A stretch of 64,000 bases of DNA from NCBI GenBank assembly GCA_022709385.1, contig JAKLIX010000022.1, positions 1 through 64,000 on the forward strand, written 5' to 3'. The notes beneath the pieces were generated by a model. That model was not told the DNA's origin. It ran no database searches and saw only the letters and a program-made list of their open reading frames with translations. Of the stretch, positions 3,584-63,458 are shown in pieces (within the stretch, counting starts at the first letter, position 1; each line of letters opens with the position of its first letter). The translations under genes were made by a program, and so were the position numbers. Origin of the DNA: Bacteroidota bacterium (GTDB lineage Bacteria; Bacteroidota; Bacteroidia; Bacteroidales; CAIXZF01).

Positions 3584-4747
3584 TTACTTCTCTGTTGCAA
3601 TTTGCTTAATAACTTCTGTGCCAATATCTAATGCTTTTTCGGCTTTACTTGGATCCTTCACTAATCCAGATACATTTGAGCCAAAGTTGAAAAACGAAAA
3701 TCCTGTTTTAAGATCACCAATTGTTTTCTTTGCAGCTGGGGAATTGCAAACTTGTTGTAAGGAACTTTCTCCATTTGAATTAGTCCCAATATCATCAATA
3801 CTATTAACTAATTGCAAGCCTAACCCAACAGTAGCGACTACTCCAGTTTCAGCCATTAATCCAACTCCTGCAGTCATTACACCTATAACACCGCTTGCAA
3901 CTGCCGCATCTTGCCTATCAACCCTGCCCATATTGGCTCCATCATGCCCGCCTTCTAGCTTATTATCAAACTGAGCAAATGAATGACAAAGGTTTCCCAA
4001 AACACTTCTTTGATCCTCTTTGGTTGGTAAAAAAACTTTTGATTCGCTTACACTTACACCATTAGTCGAATAATTCCTATCCACAGATGCGTATTTCATA
4101 CCATTAGTACCTTTCCACTTATGAAATTCACCTCCATTTTTTCGCTTGAAAGCTCTTGCTTCCCGAACATTTGCATTTTCCCAAGGCCATTTTCCGTCAG
4201 GGTCTTGAAGCCTTACAGGATTATTCAGACAATAAGTGAAAGGAGAAATCGAAGGAGTCCTATCACTTAACGGGTCAACCCCCAGAAACACAGACGTTTT
4301 CGGATCATAGTACCGTGCCCCGTAATAGTACAACCCGCTCTCCTCATCAAGCTCTTTGCAGTTAAATTTATAGGGACTGATCCAAGTCTGGGCTTTTTCA
4401 TCGATCAGGACTTCTCCGAAGGGCAGGTAATCGACATGCTGATATGGTGTTCCATCAAATGCGGTAATGAAGGAAGTGCTTCCCAGGTGATCAGGGTGGA
4501 AGAAATACATACCGGTTTCAGGATCATCCCGGTGATTCTGTAGTGAGAGGAAGCTATACAGGCCCGACGACATCACAAAGGTACCGGGCTGCCCGCAACT
4601 GTCAAGGTCGTCCAGTACCATCTGCTCATTCATGGTCATTTTACTGTCATTGTCCTGTTGCGAATTTACATCAAATCCGCAGACCCAGTCGAAAAAATCT
4701 GTTTCATTCACCATGTGACACATGGAGCCCAGGTCGGGTTTTATCAT
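3584..4747 (-). CDS. Rhs repeat-associated core protein with variable C-terminal tip, 5'-truncated
   Basis: The 387-aa product has the Rhs/YD core at about residues 75-185, with FHPDHLGSTSF, YLPFGEVLID, GLYYYGARYYDP, FLGVDPLSD and an NPVRLQDPDGKWPW end. About 200 residues after DPDGK form the variable tip. The tip is AT-rich, with a long Ala/Gly/Val hydrophobic stretch (about residues 280-310) that could enter membranes. Full Rhs proteins are usually well over 1000 aa with many upstream YD repeats. Here the repeats and the secretion part are missing, so this is a truncated gene or a silent tip cassette. The downstream gene at 3035-3550 is its likely immunity partner. No known toxin motif was recognised in the tip. 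Confidence 0.7.
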   Translation of the reverse strand: MIKPDLGSMCHMVNETDFFDWVCGFDVNSQQDNDSKMTMNEQMVLDDLDSCGQPGTFVMSSGLYSFLSLQNHRDDPETGMYFFHPDHLGSTSFITAFDGTPYQHVDYLPFGEVLIDEKAQTWISPYKFNCKELDEESGLYYYGARYYDPKTSVFLGVDPLSDRTPSISPFTYCLNNPVRLQDPDGKWPWENANVREARAFKRKNGGEFHKWKGTNGMKYASVDRNYSTNGVSVSESKVFLPTKEDQRSVLGNLCHSFAQFDNKLEGGHDGANMGRVDRQDAAVASGVIGVMTAGVGLMAETGVVATVGLGLQLVNSIDDIGTNSNGESSLQQVCNSPAAKKTIGDLKTGFSFFNFGSNVSGLVKDPSKAEKALDIGTEVIKQIATEK

Positions 4748-5004: not shown

Positions 5005-5023
5005 TGGAATCGTTTTTTCTGCA

Positions 5024-5122
5024 ATACCTAATGAACACATAAATGCGATGTGTGTTCCCAGATTCATCGGTATAAAGAATCTAAGCGAAAATTACTTCGC
5101 ATTTTCACTAAGATTCTGTTTA
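5024..5122 (+). repeat. B-type MITE copy 1
   Basis: A ~99-bp repeat closely matches 6430-6527. The shared core runs from AATGCGATGTGTGTT through ATTCATCGGTATAAAGAATC to a terminal hairpin containing GCGAAAATTACTTCGC. Left end ATACC and the imperfect right end resemble those of the A-type repeats and of the IS630 end at 41302-41327. It overlaps the last 31 bases of the gene at 5092-5403 and supplies that gene's stop codon. Confidence 0.7.
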
Positions 5123-5403
5123 AACCATTTTTCTGCATTTGGTCTGCGGTGCGGGCAGCCAGGCCAGCAACAGGGTTGTCGTTTACCCTCGTTTAATTCT
5201 TCAAGCATACGGTCTATATGTTCCGCCCTTGTCACGGTTTTTTTGACTGTTGTAACCCAGCAAATCCATTCGTTACGCTGAATGGGTGTAAGTTGATTCC
5301 ATTTCATAAGAACGGCTGGATTGGAAGCCAATGCGCTTTTCATGTCCTCCGGCACTTCATGAAGTATTCCATTGGAAATTTCGCTGGTCTTATTTGGATC
5401 CAT
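5092..5403 (-). CDS. YdeI/OmpD-associated family protein
   Basis: This 103-aa protein matches the short C-terminal form of the YdeI/OmpD-associated (bacteriocin-protection) family. It has PEDMKSALASNP near residue 20, LTPIQRNEWICWV at about 38-50, a KKTVTRAEHIDRMLEEL helix, and a CCWPGCPHR end at about 78-86. Family members are small cytosolic proteins whose biochemistry is poorly known. After CCWPGCPHRR, where relatives usually stop, the frame continues about 17 residues. The last of these and the TAA come from the B-type MITE at 5024-5122, so the C-terminus appears modified by the insertion. Confidence 0.75.
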   Translation of the reverse strand: MDPNKTSEISNGILHEVPEDMKSALASNPAVLMKWNQLTPIQRNEWICWVTTVKKTVTRAEHIDRMLEELNEGKRQPCCWPGCPHRRPNAEKWFKQNLSENAK

Positions 5404-5433: not shown

Positions 5434-5538
5434 TATACCGACACGGAATGAGTTTGCGAAAAAATTGCGATTCAAGGGTGTACGGCATTACTCATACTAA
5501 ACAGCTTTGCATTCGCAAACCTGTCAAGTATGAGTATA
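5434..5538 (+). repeat. A-type IS630-like MITE copy 1
   Basis: A 105-bp repeat starts TATACCGACACGG and ends GAGTATA. Each end shows a 26-bp imperfect terminal inverted repeat: left TATACCGA...GAGTTTGCGA and, reversed, right TATACTCA...ACAGGTTTGCGA. The right end folds into a hairpin (ACTCATACT ... AGTATGAGT, with TTTGC/GCAAA at the tip). Other copies are at 40905-41005, 46055-46158 and 63353-63458. It lies in the gap between 5403 and 5627. Confidence 0.8.
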
Positions 5539-6429: not shown

Positions 6430-6527
6430 ATACCGAGGAAAACAGGAATGCGATGTGTGTTTCCAGATTCATCGGTATAAAGAATCCTACCGAAAATTGC
6501 TTCGCATTTTCACGAAGATTCAGTATA
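6430..6527 (+). repeat. B-type MITE copy 2
   Basis: A ~98-bp repeat starts ATACCGAGGAAAACAGG and ends CAGTATA. The interior is nearly identical to 5024-5122. The left end is even closer to the IS630 remnant end at 41302-41327 (ATACCGAGG...AACAGG..TGCGA). The right-hand hairpin pairs GAATC...GATTC around GCGAAAATTGCTTCGC-like sequence. Confidence 0.7.
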
Positions 6528-19764: not shown

Positions 19765-19891
19765 GGCGATTGATTTTTTATGTGATTAAATGATTCTCGC
19801 CCCTGCGGGCTCAGCATGAAGATGCAGAAGCCCGCTTTTTTCCATAAACCATGGCAGCTGTGCATTTGAGAACCTGACAAAAATGAGTATA

Positions 19892-40783: not shown

Positions 40784-40904
40784 GGAAATTGGCCGGACAT
40801 ATACCGGCATGGAAAGGATTTGCCAATAGTTCGGGATAGTACTCCCGTCAGTTAGGGACTTGCAGCGTCCGGAGAAAAAACGACAGCTTTTGTTTATACT
40901 CAAA

Positions 40905-41005
40905 TATACTCAGTCTTGACAGGTTTGCGAATGCAAAGCTGTTTAGACTGAGTTATGCCGACTGTTATTACACAATTTTTAGCAAAACTGTTCCGTGTCG
41001 GTATA
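40905..41005 (-). repeat. A-type IS630-like MITE copy 2
   Basis: This 101-bp copy is in reverse orientation. Its right terminus (at 40905) starts TATACTCAGTCTTGACAGG and its left terminus (at 41005) reads TATACCGACACGG on the minus strand. The hairpin arms are ACTCAGTCT and AGACTGAGT, i.e. changed in both arms relative to copy 1. It abuts and truncates the IS630 transposase remnant. Confidence 0.8.
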
Positions 41006-41256
41006 TCAGCAAGTAGGCCCTCAATTCCATCCTCCTGGTACCTTTCACGCCAGCGTCGAATTGTTGAGTCATCCGCAAGCAACACTCTAACGATCAGTTC
41101 ATACGGATGACCATCGTTAAGCATCAGGATAGCCTTGATTTTATCGCAGACACGTTTATCTCGCGACTTTTTATGCCTGATATGAAGGTCGTAAACTTGC
41201 GCCGCTGATAACAATGTAGCCATCAGGCGCAAAATAATATTGAAAACACTTGACAT
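41006..41256 (-). pseudogene. IS630-family transposase remnant (N-terminal HTH only)
   Basis: About 83 residues remain of an IS630-type transposase. The DNA-binding half shows RDKRVCDKIKAILMLNDG, a helix with DDSTIRRWRERYQEDG, and GIEGLLAD. The catalytic DDE half is missing, because the frame runs into the A-type MITE at 41005. The element's outer end survives at 41302-41327. Confidence 0.7.
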
Positions 41257-41301
41257 ACTCAGATGCTTTGTATTACTTTTACACAATCCAAGGTTAATAA
41301 G

Positions 41302-41327
41302 TCGCAAACCTGTTCAGCCTCGGTATA
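41302..41327 (-). repeat. Surviving terminal repeat of the IS630 remnant
   Basis: On the minus strand this 26-bp end begins TATACCGAGGCTGAACAGG and ends TTTGCGA, 46 bp before the transposase ATG. It matches the left end of A-type MITE copy 1 at 20 of 26 positions and the right end of that MITE at 20 of 26, including the 12-base ACAGGTTTGCGA. This links the MITEs to this IS. Confidence 0.7.
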
Positions 41328-41466: not shown

Positions 41467-43992
41467 ATGAAAAAATCTATTATTCAAAACAAGATGCATC
41501 TTGCAAATGCTCACACCATGTTTTTAAGAAAGACTGTCGTAAACCGATTGAGATGGATAACGACATTTGTTATTATGATTTTTCTTCTCCTCTATTCAAG
41601 AGGTCTATTTTCTCAAACCTTTTCTAACCCAATACAACTAACATATATTGATAGTCTTGAATTATACTTAGCTGATACTTTTATTGTCGATACATCAAAC
41701 ATGTGGTTCAGCTTTCAGTCATTAAGTAGGCATTTAATATTAGTGACAAGCCCAATTGATACTGTTATTACCGTTAAACCAGACTCAGTCTACATATATA
41801 CTAATATCAATTCTAATCTTCAACTTGTTAAGAGTTATGATACTGTCTCTATTATTGATTTAGATTCCATGGAAATTGACCAAATATATTATATACGAAC
41901 AAAATACTCACAAAATGGAGCTTCTCGTTTCAGTATTTTTGGAGAACCAAACTATTTTACCGTAAAACTTACTAGAGTCGCAGATAATGTAAACCAGCTT
42001 TGTGTATTTGATACATACTTTAGTTTATCTTTTACGTACCCACCTACATATCCTAATGATTATTTTGTCCAAAATTGTGGAGAATTATTTATCTGTAAAA
42101 ATGATCTATTTAAAATTGAAGCGTACAATCAAACTGATTATAATTATGCTGAATGGAAGTGGAAACTAGAAGGCGCATACATAACCGAAACGAATAATAT
42201 ATCTATTACTCCTCCAATCAACCAGGACCCCCCAATTTCATATACACCTGGGCCTAATAATAATAATTATTTACCGGATCCATATAAAATTGTAGCGTAC
42301 TATGAGCAAGGTGGCTCATATAACGTAAGTCTTACGTTGAAAGGTTGGAAATACAAAAATAATGTGACAACGTACTGGTATGAAGGACACAAAGGAATAG
42401 CTGAATTTACTGTAACAGTATTAGATAAAGATGATTTAGTTAGTAACTTGCCTGGGGATCAATGTCCGAATACAGATATTTCAAGCATCATGATTAATAT
42501 CCCCCCTGGTTTTAAAGTAACCAAAACATATCTGGAACGGCAGCCGAATATAGTAGTAATCAATAATGATACAGAATTTAATAGTTCATTTTCACTGGCT
42601 GAAATTCTTACCACCACTCAGACCCTTCCTTGCGGAAATTATAATTTAAGTGTTACATTTACGCCTTTGGCTGAAAACATTTATTTCCCTCAATCATGCG
42701 TTCCAATTACTCCAATTACTAAGAGTTTTCGTATTGGGTTTACTCCATCAATATCATATACCCAAAATTGCTTTCCTAATCCAATCCAATTCAACGGTAG
42801 TTCTACTTGCCCTGACGAAATAACATGGTGGAAATGGAATTTTGGAGATGCACAAACGTCTCCTTTGCAAAACCCGACTCATCAATATAACCAACACAGC
42901 AATTATAATGTATATCTTTCTGTTGGCAATAATGATCCAAGTTGTACATTTTCAACTTCAACATACTACACGTTCTTAACATCTCCAGAGAAACCTGTAA
43001 TTACAGGCCACAATAATAACTGTAGTTTAGAGTGCTCTTATTCAGTTTCCAATCCAAACTCAAATTATATCTATACATGGACAATTGTTAATTCTGATCC
43101 ACAGAATTCAAATAACTATGGTTCGTTCTCAAGTTCAGGAGTACAAACCGAAATCGATGGAATTGGTTTATCCACAGTGGCAATTTATTGGCTAAGTTCA
43201 TTCATTGCCGTTCCGGAGAGAGTTTACTTAGTTGTTACTGTAGAAAATGCTTACGGTTGCATTATTTCAGATACAATGGAAATATTTGATTGTTGCATTG
43301 GTGAGGACATAGTATTCCAAAATGAAACATTTCCCCCCATTTACATAAACAACAAGACTGTTTCTTTATTGCATTCAAATATTATAAGTACTCTTAATCA
43401 AATATATCATGGTCAGATAGTTATTAATGGAATTCTACTGGTTGATCAAAATTTAACAATCAATGATAATTCACATATAAAATTCGGCCCATGTGCCAGT
43501 ATTATAATAAATCCTGCATGCACACTCACTATTAATAACAGCAAACTTGGTCAACAGTGCAACTATATGTGGAAAGGTATTTATTTAAATCATGGCAGTT
43601 CCCAAATTATAATTACCAATAATTCTGAAGTTTGTGATGCTTTAGACGGAATTGTTTCAAGATCAGGAGGAAATGTATATATCACTTCTTCGGTCTTGAA
43701 AAACAACCTATACTGCTTGCAGATCAAAAATTTCGGTCCTCCCTACGTCGATGATCCAGTGTACTTTCCCGGTTCTGTTTCAATGTGCAGTTTTACTAAT
43801 GATAAGGCCGGAGGTCTGCTGGAATATCCTCCATATGCCGGATTTCGCTCTATTTGCGGAATTGAAGCAAAAAATGTTTCAAATTCAGGTTTAATTATAG
43901 GCAATGCTGAAGATAACTCACCGAACTACTTTAGTAACATGAATCATGCGATAAGAGGTACAGATTCGCGTTTAATAATTTGTAATCACTAG
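41467..43992 (+). CDS. N-terminal part of a large secreted PKD-domain protein, interrupted by a MITE
   Basis: An 841-codon frame has an N-terminal signal/anchor (MIFLLLYSRGLFSQ, residues 38-51) after a basic leader. A PKD-type domain lies near residues 440-500 (WKWNFGDAQTSPLQNPTHQY). A beta-helix-like region follows at the end. The region is strongly AT-rich and Asn/Tyr/Ser-rich compared with flanking genes, suggesting transfer. The frame ends at TAG 43990 inside a 203-bp inserted element. Without it the frame continues exactly into 44199-46052. As it stands the product lacks the T9SS sorting domain. Confidence 0.75.
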   Translation: MKKSIIQNKMHLANAHTMFLRKTVVNRLRWITTFVIMIFLLLYSRGLFSQTFSNPIQLTYIDSLELYLADTFIVDTSNMWFSFQSLSRHLILVTSPIDTVITVKPDSVYIYTNINSNLQLVKSYDTVSIIDLDSMEIDQIYYIRTKYSQNGASRFSIFGEPNYFTVKLTRVADNVNQLCVFDTYFSLSFTYPPTYPNDYFVQNCGELFICKNDLFKIEAYNQTDYNYAEWKWKLEGAYITETNNISITPPINQDPPISYTPGPNNNNYLPDPYKIVAYYEQGGSYNVSLTLKGWKYKNNVTTYWYEGHKGIAEFTVTVLDKDDLVSNLPGDQCPNTDISSIMINIPPGFKVTKTYLERQPNIVVINNDTEFNSSFSLAEILTTTQTLPCGNYNLSVTFTPLAENIYFPQSCVPITPITKSFRIGFTPSISYTQNCFPNPIQFNGSSTCPDEITWWKWNFGDAQTSPLQNPTHQYNQHSNYNVYLSVGNNDPSCTFSTSTYYTFLTSPEKPVITGHNNNCSLECSYSVSNPNSNYIYTWTIVNSDPQNSNNYGSFSSSGVQTEIDGIGLSTVAIYWLSSFIAVPERVYLVVTVENAYGCIISDTMEIFDCCIGEDIVFQNETFPPIYINNKTVSLLHSNIISTLNQIYHGQIVINGILLVDQNLTINDNSHIKFGPCASIIINPACTLTINNSKLGQQCNYMWKGIYLNHGSSQIIITNNSEVCDALDGIVSRSGGNVYITSSVLKNNLYCLQIKNFGPPYVDDPVYFPGSVSMCSFTNDKAGGLLEYPPYAGFRSICGIEAKNVSNSGLIIGNAEDNSPNYFSNMNHAIRGTDSRLIICNH
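43978..43986. repeat. Target-site duplication, left copy
   Basis: ATTTGTAAT immediately precedes the miniature element and is repeated exactly at 44190-44198. Confidence 0.85.
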
Positions 43993-44189
43993 CGTTGCGT
44001 TAACTTTTAAAATTCAATAAATCTATATATTCATTGTTCGTTACGTCCATTATATCAATTAGTTATGTTTTATGCCTCAAGTAAAATTCTCAGCAATCGT
44101 TTCAAATCGTGGCCTACTTATTTCCCTCTATAATGCCCTAATACCAATGGCTTCATAAGTATTTGTCAAACAACAACGCAACGCCAGTG
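43987..44189. mobile_element. 203-bp miniature inverted-repeat element inside the secreted-protein gene
   Basis: The left end CACTAGCGTTGCGTT (43987-44001) and right end AACGCAACGCCAGTG (44175-44189) are inverted repeats matching at 14 of 15 positions. They are flanked by a perfect 9-bp duplication ATTTGTAAT. The interior is AT-rich and codes for nothing. It is a non-autonomous element unrelated in ends to the A and B MITEs; the family of its helper transposase is unknown. Confidence 0.9.
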
Positions 44190-46052
44190 ATTTGTAATAA
44201 TGAATTTACTGATATTGAAATTCCATATTTTTCTTCTATTGATAAAGACAGACAAGGCGCAATTTATTTATTATCAACAAAAACAGCGAATATCGCGCCG
44301 CTAAACATATCTGCTTCATGGGTAGTACTTGGAGGAAATGACGGGAATTCAAATCATTTCACTAACTGTAATGCTGGTTTGTATAATTACAATCAAAAAG
44401 CTACTGTTACAAACAATACATTTGTAGATTGCAAAAATGCGATAAAACTGATTGAAATAATATCCCCAACCATTATACGAGAGAATGAAATCAATATGAC
44501 TTCTGTTGATGAAGTTGGAACGGGTATTTTCGCGGCAAATGTAAACCTGAAATCAACTCCCGATCGAATTGCCATTTCTCGTAATGTAATTACCGATATG
44601 GCAAGTGGAATACGGGTTATTAACTTAAGAGGTCATAACATGCTTCCATTTGTCAGGATAGATACAAATCTTGTCTTTTACAGTGAGAGTTCTAACCCAC
44701 CTCCCAATCCTCCGATTAAGACAGGAATATTTGCCGAGAATTGCATATATCCGCGACTACGTTTTGATAGTATTTCTTTTGCCGATTTGGAGGTATCCGA
44801 GGAGGATATTCAAAGAAAAAAGGGCATTCGTCTTGCGAATGTGCGTACAGGTACGTTAATTGAGAACCATGTTTACAAGGCAGGTTCCGGTATATTTACC
44901 AATGGACTGCTTACGAATACACAGTTTCTGTGTAACAGTCTTGAAGATTGCTTTCATGGATTCTATTTTGGCAATTATACTTCCTTAAGCGACCAGGGCT
45001 ATCCGGAAAACACACAACTTAATATTCCAGGTCTCAATCCGCAAAACTTTTTCTTCGGGAATTATGATCCAATGTTAAATTGTAAATTGCAATCATGCGA
45101 TGGTTGTATTTTAAATCCGGAGGTGCGCTGGTTTTATCAATATGGAGGATCAAGTTCCGTTTTATTGGACGTTGGTCTTAATAATAGTCTTGCATATGAA
45201 AAAATAATACCTTATCCGAATATTATTGGGACCAATGTGTGTGTACTTCAGAACAAAGACCGCAGAGACACCCTACTATGTGATACAATTACCAGGGAAT
45301 CAATACTTGGGCGTATATTAAGGAATGAGAATTTCTATGAAATGCTTCAGGCACAATACTCATATTATGATGCTTACCATCTTTTCGAATTACTCGGAGG
45401 TGATACAAGTGCTTTAAATCTTGGTGGCAGTGACGACTTGGATTACCGTTTGATGTATGACAGCCTGAAAAACGCCAATCCGGGGGCCATTGAGAATTAT
45501 TACTCTTCCGTTGATTTTAATGGTTTAGATTCGGCAAGGTATTGGAATGAACATGTTTACACGAATACCGACTGGGATATTTATCGAAAGGAGGTCAATA
45601 ATATATATCTGAATTCCTGGTTTATCAACAACAGGAATTTAGACAGTGCATCAAGGGCATCATTGTTCTCAATAGCCAATGAAATTCCTTATTACTATGG
45701 AGATGCAGTTTATACTGCCCGTGTCATGCTGGATTTGCATCCCGACGATTTGATGTTACCATATAGTTCTCCTTACACTGCAAACCAGCAGGAAAGAACC
45801 TCTATCCTGGTTTATCCGAATCCAACTTTCGGAAATATTACTATTACTGTATCTGGAGAAATACCTAAATCAATGGAAATTCGTATTTATGACATATTTG
45901 GGCGAGAGGTTTGCAACAAAAGGATAGAAAATGTACAATATGAAAATCAGATTCCATTGCAAAATTTGTCAACCGGATGTTATATTTGCAGAGTTTACAT
46001 TGCAGGTAGCGCATTGACATACACAAAAGTTGTAATTATGGGTAATAAATAG
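44163..46052 (+). CDS. C-terminal part of the interrupted secreted protein, with T9SS sorting domain
   Basis: The open frame has only a TTG inside the MITE as start. Genuine protein sequence begins at codon 44199 (NEFTDIEIPYF). It has right-handed beta-helix-like repeats (about 10-300) and a C-terminal type A T9SS sorting domain (about 545-629: SILVYPNPTFGNI, then IPLQNLSTGCYICRVY). It is in the same frame as 41467-43992 once the 203-bp element and one target copy are removed. The frame itself shows no decay, so the insertion is recent. Confidence 0.75.
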   Translation: MSNNNATPVICNNEFTDIEIPYFSSIDKDRQGAIYLLSTKTANIAPLNISASWVVLGGNDGNSNHFTNCNAGLYNYNQKATVTNNTFVDCKNAIKLIEIISPTIIRENEINMTSVDEVGTGIFAANVNLKSTPDRIAISRNVITDMASGIRVINLRGHNMLPFVRIDTNLVFYSESSNPPPNPPIKTGIFAENCIYPRLRFDSISFADLEVSEEDIQRKKGIRLANVRTGTLIENHVYKAGSGIFTNGLLTNTQFLCNSLEDCFHGFYFGNYTSLSDQGYPENTQLNIPGLNPQNFFFGNYDPMLNCKLQSCDGCILNPEVRWFYQYGGSSSVLLDVGLNNSLAYEKIIPYPNIIGTNVCVLQNKDRRDTLLCDTITRESILGRILRNENFYEMLQAQYSYYDAYHLFELLGGDTSALNLGGSDDLDYRLMYDSLKNANPGAIENYYSSVDFNGLDSARYWNEHVYTNTDWDIYRKEVNNIYLNSWFINNRNLDSASRASLFSIANEIPYYYGDAVYTARVMLDLHPDDLMLPYSSPYTANQQERTSILVYPNPTFGNITITVSGEIPKSMEIRIYDIFGREVCNKRIENVQYENQIPLQNLSTGCYICRVYIAGSALTYTKVVIMGNK

Positions 46053-46054
46053 CT

Positions 46055-46158
46055 TATACCGACATGGAATGGGTTAGCGAAAAATATACTTCAGAACAGT
46101 GTGCGGCATTACTCATTCTACGCAGCTTTGCTTCGCAAACCTGCGTAGAATGAGTATA
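46055..46158 (+). repeat. A-type IS630-like MITE copy 3
   Basis: This 104-bp copy starts two bases after the stop of the upstream gene and ends 13 bp before the ATG at 46172. Hairpin arms ACTCATTCTACGCAG and CTGCGTAGAATGAGT pair perfectly around GCTTTGCTTCGCAAAC-type sequence. Any transcript from upstream into 46172 must pass this hairpin. Confidence 0.8.
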
Positions 46159-59942: not shown

Positions 59943-62900
59943 ATGAAAGAGATCACAGAAAAAGTGAAGGAGTTCTTCGGAACCTCCTGGGCCATCGACA
60001 ACCGCTCCAGCATATACGTGCTGACAGTCATCATCACCATCCTGGGATTGTTCAGCTATTTCACCATGCCCAAGGAGTCCTTCCCCGAGGTGGTGATCCC
60101 CACGGTACTCGTCAGCACCGTTTACCCCGGCACATCGCCCCAGGACATGGAAAACCTGGTTACCAGGCCCATAGAAAAGGAACTGAAATCCCTGTCCGAC
60201 GTTAAAAACATCACCAGCTCCTCCCTGCAGGACTATTCCTCCATCGGCGTAGAGTTCAACACCGATGTCGAAATCACCGAAGCCAAACAAAGGGTGAAAG
60301 ATGCCGTGGACAAAGCCCGTCCCAAACTTCCCAACAACCTTCCATCAGAACCCGACGTGATGGACATCAACCTGTCGGAATTCCCCATCATGTATATCCA
60401 GTTATCCGGCAATTACGACCTCGACAGGCTGAAAAAATACGCGGAAGCCGCCCAGGACAAGATAGAGACACTCAAGGAAATCACCCGCGTGGATATCGTC
60501 GGCGCCCTCGAGCGGGAGATCCAGGTAAATGTGGATATGTACAAACTCCAGATCGCAAGCCTCACCCTGGGCGATGTGGAACGGGCCATCGCCGGCGAAA
60601 ACCTCACCATCTCGGGTGGAAATATGACCACCTACGGCATGAAAAGATCCATCAGGGTGGAAGGCCAGTTTAAAGATCCGTCCGAAATCGCCAATATCGC
60701 CCTCATCTCCTCCAGCGGCGCCATGGTGTATATCAAGAATATCGCCACCGTAAAGGATACCTTCAAGGAACAGGAAAGCTTCTCCCGCCTCAACGGGAAA
60801 AACGTCATCACCCTGAATGTAATCAAAAAGAGCGGGGAAAACCTGCTCAATGCCTCCGATCAGATCAACGACATCCTTGCTGAAATGAAAAAGGCAGACT
60901 TCCCGCCCGACTTGGACGTGGTCCTCACCGGCGAACAGTCGCGCTATACCAGGAACACCCTGGAAGAACTCAACTTTACCATGATCGTAGGCTTCCTGCT
61001 CGTGACCCTGGTACTGATGTTCTTCATGGGATTCACCAATGCCTTCTTCGTGGCCCTGGCCGTGCCCCTGTCGATGTTCATCGCTTATATGATCATGCCG
61101 GCACTGGATTATTCCATGAACATGATGACCATGTTCAGCTTCATCTTTGCCCTGGGGATCATCGTCGACGACGCCATCGTGGTGATAGAAAACACCCACC
61201 GTATCCATAAATTCCAGCCGGATATCGTCAAAGCTGCCAAATACGGAGCAGGCGAAGTGTTTCTGCCCATCCTTTCAGGTACCCTCACCACCCTGGCACC
61301 CTTCTTCCCCCTGATCTTCTGGCCGGGTATCGTCGGTCAGTTCATGATCTACCTTCCCGTTACCCTCATCATCTCCCTGTTCGCCTCCCTCTTCGTGGCC
61401 TATTTTATCAATCCGGTATTCGCGGTTTCCTTTATGAAACACGAATACCACACCATGAAAGATTCGGAAAGAAGAAGAAGGCTCAGAAGAAGCTCCATCC
61501 TTTTCATTTCCCTCGGACTGATCTTCCACCTGATGCGCTGGCCCGGCATGGGGAACTTCATGATCCTGGTCTTTATCCTTAACCTGCTCTTCCACCTCTA
61601 TGTCAAAAAAGCCATCAAATGGTTCCAGTCCACCGGCTGGCCCGCGGCACTGAACCTCTACGAAAAACAACTCCGTTTCTTCCTGAAGGGAAGGATGCCA
61701 TACTGGCTCCTGGGCGGTATCATGGCCCTTTTCTTCCTTGCCTTCATCATTGCAGGCATGGCCAACCTGAAAGTCAGGTTCTTTCCCGACAATGAGCCCA
61801 ACAATATCTATGTGATGATCAGCCTTCCCGTGGGTACCGACCAGCTTGTTACCGACAGCATCACGGCCGTTGTGGAACAGAAAGTGATGGATGTGCTCGG
61901 GAAAGACAATCCCGACGTGGAATCGGTCATCACCAACGTGGCCCTCGGCGCAAGCGATCCGGAAGGTTTCGACCGCTCCGTAGCCTCAGAAAAGGGAATG
62001 ATCACGGTCAACTTTGTGGAACACAAATTCCGTCAGGGACAAAAAACGGAAACCTACCTCGAAAAAATCAGGGAAGTGGTGAAGGGAATCCCCGCCGCCA
62101 ACATCGTGGTGCAGAAAAACAGCATGGGCCCGCCAACCGGTAAACCCATCAATATCGAGATCAGCGGCGAGGACCTGCCCGTCCTCATCGCCAATGCCGA
62201 AGCATTCCAGAATTACCTTGATTCCGCACAGATCCAGGGAATACAGGAACTTAAATCGAATTTCGATAAATATAAACCGGAGGTCATCATCAAGATCGAC
62301 CGCGAAAGGGCCAACCGCGAAGGCATTTCCACAGGCCAGATCGCCATGGAAATCCGGAATGCCGTTTATGGCGCAGAAGTCTCGAAATTCAAGGACGGAG
62401 AAGACGAATACCCCATCCAGCTCCGCTACGACGAAAAAACCCGCAAAAACGTGGATGCCCTGATCAACCTGAAGATCATCTTTATGGATATGGTCTCGGG
62501 AAAACTGCGCCAGATCCCGCTTTCCTCTGTGGCTTCCATCCAGTACCAGGACAGCTACGGCGGTATCAACCGGAAAAACCTCAAACGGGTGATCACCATC
62601 TCTTCGGAAGTACTCAGCGGATACACCGCCAATGAAGTCGTTGCCAAAATCAAAACCCTGGCGGAAAGGTTTCCGAAAAGCATGGGCATTGAGATCAAAC
62701 TGACAGGAGAACAGGAAGAACAGGAAGAAACCTCCAACTTCCTCTTCCTGGCCATGATCATTTCACTCGGCCTGATCTTCTTCATCCTGATCACCCAGTT
62801 TAATTCCATCGGCAAAGCGGTGATCATCCTGAGCGAGGTGGTCTTTTCCATCATCGGGGTGATCCTGGGCTACGCCATCTTCGGCATGGACATCTCCATC

Positions 62901-63356
62901 CTGATGACCGGACTGGGAATCGTGGCCCTGGGAGGAATCGTCGTGAGGAACGGCATCCTGATCGTGGAGTTCACCGATGTGCTGAAAAGCCAGGGCCTGA
63001 AAACACGGCAGGCGCTGATCCAGGCCGGAAAAACGCGTATCACCCCGGTGATCCTGACGGCTACCGCCACCATGATGGGACTGGTCCCCCTGGCACTCGG
63101 CCTCAACATCAACTTTGTTACCCTGTTCACGGAACTCAATCCGCACATCCACTATGGCGGCGACAACGTGATGTTCTGGGGCCCGCTGTCCTGGGCCATC
63201 ATCTTCGGACTGAGCTTCGCCACCTTCCTCACCCTGATCTTCGTGCCTGCCATGTACCTGATGTACGAAGCCTTCAAGGTGAGGCTCAGCAGGAGAAAGT
63301 CCAACAAAACCTATCGCAGGATACAAAAGGGAGAATCACCCTTCATGTGGAATTAA
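59943..63356 (+). CDS. RND efflux transporter permease (AcrB/HAE1 type)
   Basis: This 1137-aa inner-membrane proton antiporter has 12 TM helices and two large periplasmic loops. Asp409-Asp410 in LGIIVDDAIVVIENTHR form the proton relay, and GGIVVRNGILIVEF marks the second half. The C-terminal tail is basic. Substrate range is unknown; the two-TetR operon suggests induction by hydrophobic compounds. Its stop codon lies inside an A-type MITE. Confidence 0.93.
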   Translation: MKEITEKVKEFFGTSWAIDNRSSIYVLTVIITILGLFSYFTMPKESFPEVVIPTVLVSTVYPGTSPQDMENLVTRPIEKELKSLSDVKNITSSSLQDYSSIGVEFNTDVEITEAKQRVKDAVDKARPKLPNNLPSEPDVMDINLSEFPIMYIQLSGNYDLDRLKKYAEAAQDKIETLKEITRVDIVGALEREIQVNVDMYKLQIASLTLGDVERAIAGENLTISGGNMTTYGMKRSIRVEGQFKDPSEIANIALISSSGAMVYIKNIATVKDTFKEQESFSRLNGKNVITLNVIKKSGENLLNASDQINDILAEMKKADFPPDLDVVLTGEQSRYTRNTLEELNFTMIVGFLLVTLVLMFFMGFTNAFFVALAVPLSMFIAYMIMPALDYSMNMMTMFSFIFALGIIVDDAIVVIENTHRIHKFQPDIVKAAKYGAGEVFLPILSGTLTTLAPFFPLIFWPGIVGQFMIYLPVTLIISLFASLFVAYFINPVFAVSFMKHEYHTMKDSERRRRLRRSSILFISLGLIFHLMRWPGMGNFMILVFILNLLFHLYVKKAIKWFQSTGWPAALNLYEKQLRFFLKGRMPYWLLGGIMALFFLAFIIAGMANLKVRFFPDNEPNNIYVMISLPVGTDQLVTDSITAVVEQKVMDVLGKDNPDVESVITNVALGASDPEGFDRSVASEKGMITVNFVEHKFRQGQKTETYLEKIREVVKGIPAANIVVQKNSMGPPTGKPINIEISGEDLPVLIANAEAFQNYLDSAQIQGIQELKSNFDKYKPEVIIKIDRERANREGISTGQIAMEIRNAVYGAEVSKFKDGEDEYPIQLRYDEKTRKNVDALINLKIIFMDMVSGKLRQIPLSSVASIQYQDSYGGINRKNLKRVITISSEVLSGYTANEVVAKIKTLAERFPKSMGIEIKLTGEQEEQEETSNFLFLAMIISLGLIFFILITQFNSIGKAVIILSEVVFSIIGVILGYAIFGMDISILMTGLGIVALGGIVVRNGILIVEFTDVLKSQGLKTRQALIQAGKTRITPVILTATATMMGLVPLALGLNINFVTLFTELNPHIHYGGDNVMFWGPLSWAIIFGLSFATFLTLIFVPAMYLMYEAFKVRLSRRKSNKTYRRIQKGESPFMWN

Positions 63357-63458
63357 CTCATACTCGACAGGTTTGCGAATGCAAAGCTATCAAGCATAAG
63401 CAATGCCGTACACCCCTTGATCGCATTTTTTTTCGCAAACTCATTCCGTGTCGGCATA
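63353..63458 (-). repeat. A-type IS630-like MITE copy 4
   Basis: This 106-bp reverse copy includes the TAA of the RND gene (63354-63356) and ends 5 bp before the stop of the convergent TPR gene. Left and right ends read TATGCCGACACGG and TTAACTCATACTCGACAGG in element orientation. The hairpin survives largely through G-U type changes. It fills the whole convergent intergenic space and may act as a two-way terminator. Confidence 0.8.

What the first reader, a model, noticed from the sequence alone, without database searches (positions are those of the whole stretch)
41302..41327. Dispersed ~100-bp repeats are IS630-derived MITEs
Six repeats (5024-5122, 5434-5538, 6430-6527, 40905-41005, 46055-46158, 63353-63458) share 26-bp ends. 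These ends match the end that survives 46 bp before an IS630-like transposase start (20 of 26 bases for each end of copy 1, including ACAGGTTTGCGA). Ends of TATAC...GTATA agree with TA target duplication, as known for IS630/Tc1 elements. This gives a probable parent for an apparently undescribed repeat family.
Basis: partly seen in the sequence, partly recalled or inferred. Interest (0 to 1): 0.72.

Follow-up and report, generated by a model that had tools for sequence, protein, structure and literature searches.

The report
Two-hairpin IS630-type miniature transposons in Bacteroidales
The short repeats are tiny defective jumping genes that almost certainly moved by borrowing the enzyme of a larger (IS630-type) jumping gene now lost from this genome; they are built unusually, as two tandem hairpins, and the same design occurs in many related bacteria.

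Summary
The ~104-bp repeats are non-autonomous IS630-type elements (MITEs). Four of the six window copies are one family (family 1, at least 56 copies in the genome). The other two (5024, 6430) are a second, related family (at least 40 copies). Empty copies of the same sequence show insertion at TA with TA duplication. The end before the transposase fragment matches MITE ends at 20-23 of 26 bases. In a relative (G331), a full-length 1161-bp IS630 element has two unlike ends; one matches one end of the resident ~103-bp MITEs at 24/26, the other less well (17-19/26). No intact parent is left in the window's own genome: the transposase is a truncated N-terminus, and all three such remnants stop exactly at a MITE border.

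The end motif recurs in 16 of 393 sampled genomes (10 families) of the order, mostly with this architecture, and the stems covary. The autonomous elements' ends tested form no such hairpins. Why the stems stay paired is open. New variant of a known kind (closest: RUP of Streptococcus pneumoniae).

The parts
5434..5538 (-). family-1 MITE, 105 bp, hairpins A and B, ends TATAC...GTATA
   Evidence: 40+ close copies in genome
40905..41005 (+). family-1 MITE, 101 bp, different but paired A stem (ACTCAGTCT/AGACTGAGT); abuts the truncated transposase
46055..46158 (-). family-1 MITE, 104 bp, perfect A stem (ACTCATTCTACGCAG/CTGCGTAGAATGAGT)
63353..63458 (+). family-1 MITE, decayed A hairpin and left end (TTAAC)
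5023..5122 (+). family-2 MITE (related two-hairpin family, different end core)
   Evidence: at least 40 matches in genome
6429..6527 (+). family-2 MITE
41302..41327 (-). surviving 5' end of an IS630-type element, TATACCGAGGCTGAACAGGTTTGCGA
   Evidence: 20-23/26 to family-1 ends; 0 expected by chance
41006..41301 (-). truncated IS630 transposase gene, N-terminal HTH part only (about 76 codons); no DDE part found in the genome
   Evidence: 41% identical over 74 aa to the full IS630 transposase of G331
40905..41327 (.). composite unit: IS630 5' end plus MITE, bounded by TATAC...GTATA; no IS630 3' part follows
   Evidence: same kind of truncation at C4:3580 and C4:6297
19854..19891 (-). degenerate half element (hairpin-A outer end)
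   Evidence: nhmmer E 1.6e-5
40800..40830 (.). possible degenerate B end, weak
   Evidence: 17/26, nhmmer E 0.067

Best explanation
The repeats are MITEs of an IS630 (Tc1/mariner-type) transposon group of Bacteroidales. A transposase of that group, not found intact in this assembly, recognised their 26-bp ends (TATAC-variable-ACAGGTTTGCRA), cut them out and pasted them at TA, duplicating the TA (TA duplication shown; transposase action inferred). Each element is four end-like segments, A A' B' B, folding as two hairpins of ~50 bp. Where the outer ends can be compared with an autonomous element, B corresponds to the transposase-proximal 5' end and A to the 3' end. The transposase apparently read only the outermost ends: MITE-within-MITE composites and 'IS630 5' end + MITE' composites sit at several sites with the same TA-type borders, and the outer arms are more conserved than the inner arms. 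The paired stems are probably a by-product of the inverted-repeat origin, kept matching by arm-to-arm copying or by some selection on structure; which of the two is not settled.
For: Copy number: 47 matches of family 1 at E<=10 including partial ones, 56 near-full copies after pooling, 40 of family 2. TATAC 49/56 and GTATA 43/56 at the borders. Empty sites: the copy at C30:442-546 against the uninterrupted paralogue at window 4584-4703 (95% over 120 bp, single TA at the junction); C30:148936 against a nearby paralogue (95% over 119 bp, single TA); a family-1 copy inside a family-2 element at a TA present in intact family-2 copies (93%); C5:122380 (95% over 78 bp, one TA base mutated). Parentage: G331 IS630, 1161 bp, transposase NF033545 2.8e-67 and DDE_3 4.3e-34, right end 24/26 and left end 17-19/26 to the two ends of the ~103-bp MITEs in the same genome. 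Own remnant 20-23/26. Distribution: 16 of 393 genomes of the order in 10 families, control pattern 0 in all. Anatomy: own-arm score 13.3 against 5.1 shuffled and 9.2 with other elements' arms for A; 9.1, 5.0, 5.8 for B; covariation 0.241 against 0.087 shuffled, 7 pairs changed on both sides. Composites at 9 loci. Outer arm altered in 6 of 39 copies, inner arm in 16 of 38.
Against: No intact IS630 in the window's genome, so the parent is inferred from relatives and remnants. The left end of the G331 element matches MITE end B only 17-19/26, little above the 15/26 shared by the element's own two ends. Transposition was not observed. Only one full-length element with matching ends was found; other IS630 genes in MITE-bearing genomes (G048, G084, G068, G091) show no such ends next to them. 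Empty sites are paralogues in one genome, not orthologues in strains.
Confidence: 0.88

Rival explanations
1. REP/BIME-type hairpins moved as single strands by a Y1 (RAYT) transposase; the IS630 resemblance is accidental.
For: Imperfect hairpins in tandem with a conserved mismatch (T.T at columns 13/41 in most sequences) recall REP pairs; REP biology from the PMC2817692 abstract.
Against: TA duplication at empty sites is not the Y1 pattern (established knowledge); end identity to IS630 elements in two genomes; ~104-bp units with 26-bp ends are larger than REPs. A RAYT gene was not searched for in the genome.
Confidence: 0.04
2. The hairpins are kept by the host for an RNA-level role (terminator, RNase processing, mRNA stability), and mobility is secondary.
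For: Stems covary across genomes; known MITE RNAs can be processed by RNase III or RNase E (PMC10969869).
Against: Individual copies decay on the inner arm without compensation; no enrichment between convergent genes for family 1 in a crude ORF-based count (2 of 40); no Rfam match in the window; copies of different stem sequence sit in one genome.
Confidence: 0.08
3. Ordinary MITEs of a different, unseen transposon; the IS630 remnant carries a convergent end.
For: The full parent is absent here; TA duplication also occurs with other elements (established knowledge).
Against: 24/26 match between a MITE end and a full IS630 end in G331; two remnants of IS630 5' regions in the own genome both begin with TATAC ends.
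Confidence: 0.04

Closest known systems
RUP of Streptococcus pneumoniae (107 bp, IS630-Spn1)
   Same: Length ~105 bp, TA duplication, ends like a resident IS630, about 100 copies, often found in IS genes (PMC2229807, PMC3049150)
   Different: RUP TIR given as 9 bp; most bacterial repeats are described as folding end to end, whereas here each end pairs with an internal partner (two hairpins); here no intact parent was found in the genome; host is Bacteroidales
CIR of Caulobacter/Brucella
   Same: Two inverted repeats forming two arms (PMC2229807)
   Different: CIR mobility and TA duplication are not established; no IS630 link reported there
Correia/NEMIS (Neisseria) and ERIC (enterobacteria)
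   Same: 100-200 bp, TA at termini, TIRs, TSD (PMC2229807)
   Different: different end sequences, no tandem double hairpin of four end copies described there
Bacteroidota MITEs: BrickBuilt (Porphyromonas gingivalis, IS5) and MITECca01 (Cardinium, IS982)
   Same: IS-derived MITEs in the same phylum (PMC4596501, PMC9769881)
   Different: other IS families, other ends and sizes (MITECca01 ~240 bp)

Membership tests
MITE (non-autonomous element) | short, many dispersed copies, no transposase of its own | tested here: met
   100-106 bp, 56 near-full copies of family 1, too short to encode a transposase
MITE (non-autonomous element) | terminal inverted repeats | tested here: met
   TATAC...GTATA borders, 26-bp ends with shared core
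IS630/Tc1/mariner-type MITE | target-site duplication TA | tested here: met
   paralogous empty sites
IS630/Tc1/mariner-type MITE | ends match those of an autonomous IS630 element | tested here: met
   24/26 for one end and 17-19/26 for the other in G331; remnant 20-23/26 in own genome. The second end is a weak match
IS630/Tc1/mariner-type MITE | intact partner transposase in the same genome (needed for present mobility, not for membership) | tested here: not met
   no DDE_3 match in G000 at 97% completeness
IS630/Tc1/mariner-type MITE | mobilised in trans by the transposase | not testable with these tools
   needs an excision or binding assay
REP/BIME (Y1/RAYT) | no target duplication | tested here: not met
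   TA duplicated
REP/BIME (Y1/RAYT) | Y1 tyrosine transposase in genome | not tested
RUP | sequence homology to RUP / IS630-Spn1 | not tested
   compared by published properties only

The most novel reading that the evidence does not exclude
A Bacteroidales-wide superfamily of IS630-dependent elements whose two covarying, consistently imperfect hairpins are themselves part of the mobilisation step (for example extruded or single-stranded during replication), so that structure as well as end sequence is selected.
Probability: 0.14. Interest if true: 0.75.

Novelty: new variant of a known kind. Interest (0 to 1): 0.47.

Why it matters
It gives an apparently undescribed repeat family a probable mobiliser, a TA target and a recognisable end motif, and shows a repeat design (four transposase-end segments, two hairpins, total length held near 104 bp) found in ten families of one order. 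The fast-changing but nearly always paired bases of the stem make a testable case of structure kept by mutation bias or by selection. For genome annotation it explains about a hundred repeats in one genome.

Tried and rejected
Rfam scan of the window: nothing. Intact parent in the own genome: none by DDE_3 or by the G331 transposase. The nearest genome of the same family (G001) has neither repeat nor IS630, so no orthologous empty sites. Viral contigs: no exact end motif; plasmids: no match. IS630 genes in G048, G084, G068, G091 and fragments L186, L188, L190 showed no matching ends next to them. Hits outside Bacteroidota in the genome scan (Peregrinibacteria, Clostridia) lack the second half; my estimate is about 15 chance hits in 257 Gb for that pattern, so they were set aside; the Alphaproteobacteria hit L136 has the flanks of a Bacteroidales contig (L174) and looks mis-binned. 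A terminator role between convergent genes got no support from a crude gene-orientation count. A first script for arm scores failed and was rerun.

Full report
OBSERVATION. The six coordinates are right to within one or two bases. A profile search splits them: 5434, 40905, 46055 and 63353 are one family (family 1, E 1.8e-33 to 2.6e-24); 5024 and 6430 are a second family (family 2, E 1e-21 and 8.4e-24) with weak cross-matches. The 20/26 identity between window 41302-41327 and each end of copy 5434 is exact, other copies reach 23/26, and 100 shuffles of the window give no match to such an end within 3 mismatches. In the whole genome (4.08 Mb, 32 contigs, 97% complete) family 1 has 47 matches in one search and 56 near-full copies after pooling; family 2 has at least 40 (capped).

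ANATOMY. Each family-1 element is 100-106 bp. The left ~50 bp (A) and the right ~50 bp (B) are separate hairpins: each 26-bp end pairs with an inverted, end-like internal segment. The element is thus A A' B' B, about four times 26 bp. DNA folding of the six window copies gives z-scores of -2.9 to -7.1. Over 84 clean elements from all genomes, the outer A arm aligns to its own inner arm at 13.3 against 5.1 for shuffled and 9.2 for other elements' inner arms; for B 9.1, 5.0 and 5.8. On 16 A halves of different stem sequence, 89% of cells pair, 7 pairs have changes on both sides, and the covariation score is 0.241 against 0.087 shuffled and at most 0.069 for slid partners. The variable bases are at columns 7-10; most of the rest is conserved, including a T.T mismatch at columns 13/41. 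These sequences were chosen by hand as representatives, and related sequences can exceed shuffles without structure, so the slid control is the firmer one.

TARGET. Removing an element and one TA, and searching the joined flanks, finds uninterrupted copies of the same sequence: C30:442-546 against window 4584-4703 (95% over 120 bp), C30:148936 against a nearby paralogue (95% over 119 bp), a family-1 copy inside a family-2 element (93% over 101 bp against intact copies), and C5:122380 (95% over 78 bp, one base of the TA mutated). The first two keep exactly one TA at the junction; in the third the empty copies have the TA and one base of the left TA copy is mutated in the filled one. The IS630 remnant at C4:3580 is likewise cut by a family-2 element at a TA that is present uncut in the window remnant (read by eye).

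PARENT. The window fragment is the N-terminal HTH part of an IS630 transposase. No DDE domain was found in the genome, and only two other 5' remnants (C4:3580, C4:6232). A relative, G331, has a complete 1161-bp element (L128 895-2055) with a 341-aa IS630 transposase (NF033545 2.8e-67, DDE_3 4.3e-34), 41% identical to the window fragment over 74 aa. Its right end is 24/26 identical to end A of the ~103-bp MITEs of the same genome; its left end 17-19/26 to end B, against 15/26 between the element's own two ends. So one end is a strong link and the other a modest one. The autonomous ends themselves (two own remnants, both G331 ends) have no pairing inner arm (scores 5-7, within shuffles) whereas three MITE A halves score 15-20. 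Hairpins therefore belong to the MITE form and do not look like a general need of the transposase.

HOW IT WORKED. Inferred: transposase bound the outer ends, cut and pasted at TA. Two observations suggest that only the outermost ends count. First, a MITE nested in a MITE occurs at nine loci with different flanks (the pattern cut some of them short at 187-190 bp, the complete ones are 205-207 bp), as if the composite moved as a unit. Second, all three IS630 remnants end exactly at a MITE border and the 3' part of the IS630 is absent beyond it; pairing of the IS630 5' end with the far end of an inserted MITE would carry off just such a unit. The alternative, insertion followed by unrelated deletion, is not excluded. 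In family-1 copies the outer arm is altered in 6 of 39 and the inner arm in 16 of 38, as expected if outer ends were under selection for mobility and copies then decayed. Two copies (C29:190177, C6:78497) have the outer arm changed at two sites to the complement of the inner arm, which looks like arm-to-arm copying; they may share one event.

DISTRIBUTION. The motif TATACNNNNNNTNNACAGGTTTGCRA occurs in 16 of 393 genomes of the order, 10 families, with no hit of the reversed control pattern. Record titles of most matching contigs are Bacteroidales/Bacteroidetes, and most of these show the same two-hairpin unit, typically 102-104 bp. None in viral contigs or by similarity in plasmids.

KNOWN KIND. 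The nearest described relative is RUP, 107 bp, with IS630-Spn1-like ends and TA targets (PMC2229807, PMC3049150). According to PMC2229807 the other bacterial repeats it reviews fold end to end and CIR has two arms; the two-hairpin IS630 MITE is therefore a variant. No paper found in four searches describes it, but subscription journals and ISfinder could not be searched.

OPEN. Why stems stay paired while changing sequence; what the conserved mismatch does; whether any intact transposase of this clade still moves them.

Noticed in passing
63353-63458: The left border of this MITE supplies the stop codon (TAA at 63354-63356) of a long RND-efflux-like ORF (59943-63356).
   Followed up: no
5092-5403: A small ORF on the minus strand ends inside the family-2 MITE at 5024-5122, so the repeat supplies its last codons and stop.
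   Followed up: no
41467-46052: Two consecutive large ORFs (841 and 629 aa, the second with a sorting-type C-terminus) may be one broken surface-protein gene.
   Followed up: no
L088, L038, L039 (around the MITEs): Another dispersed repeat with GTTTAG-rich units (...GGAGACCGGTTTAGGAGTTTAG...) recurs near several MITE copies.
   Followed up: no
L136 (SACF01000056.1) and L174: A contig labelled Alphaproteobacteria carries a MITE with the same flanks as a Bacteroidales contig; probably mis-binned.
   Followed up: partly
alignment A1 columns 13/41 and 19/35: Conserved T.T and G.G mismatches inside otherwise covarying stems; paired in a few own-genome subfamilies (13/41 in window 46055 and C4:6308; 19/35 in C4:6308).
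   Followed up: partly
L128 2456-2509: A solitary 54-bp palindrome TATACTGACGG...CGTCAGTATA downstream of the full IS630 in G331: a single-hairpin form of the element.
   Followed up: partly
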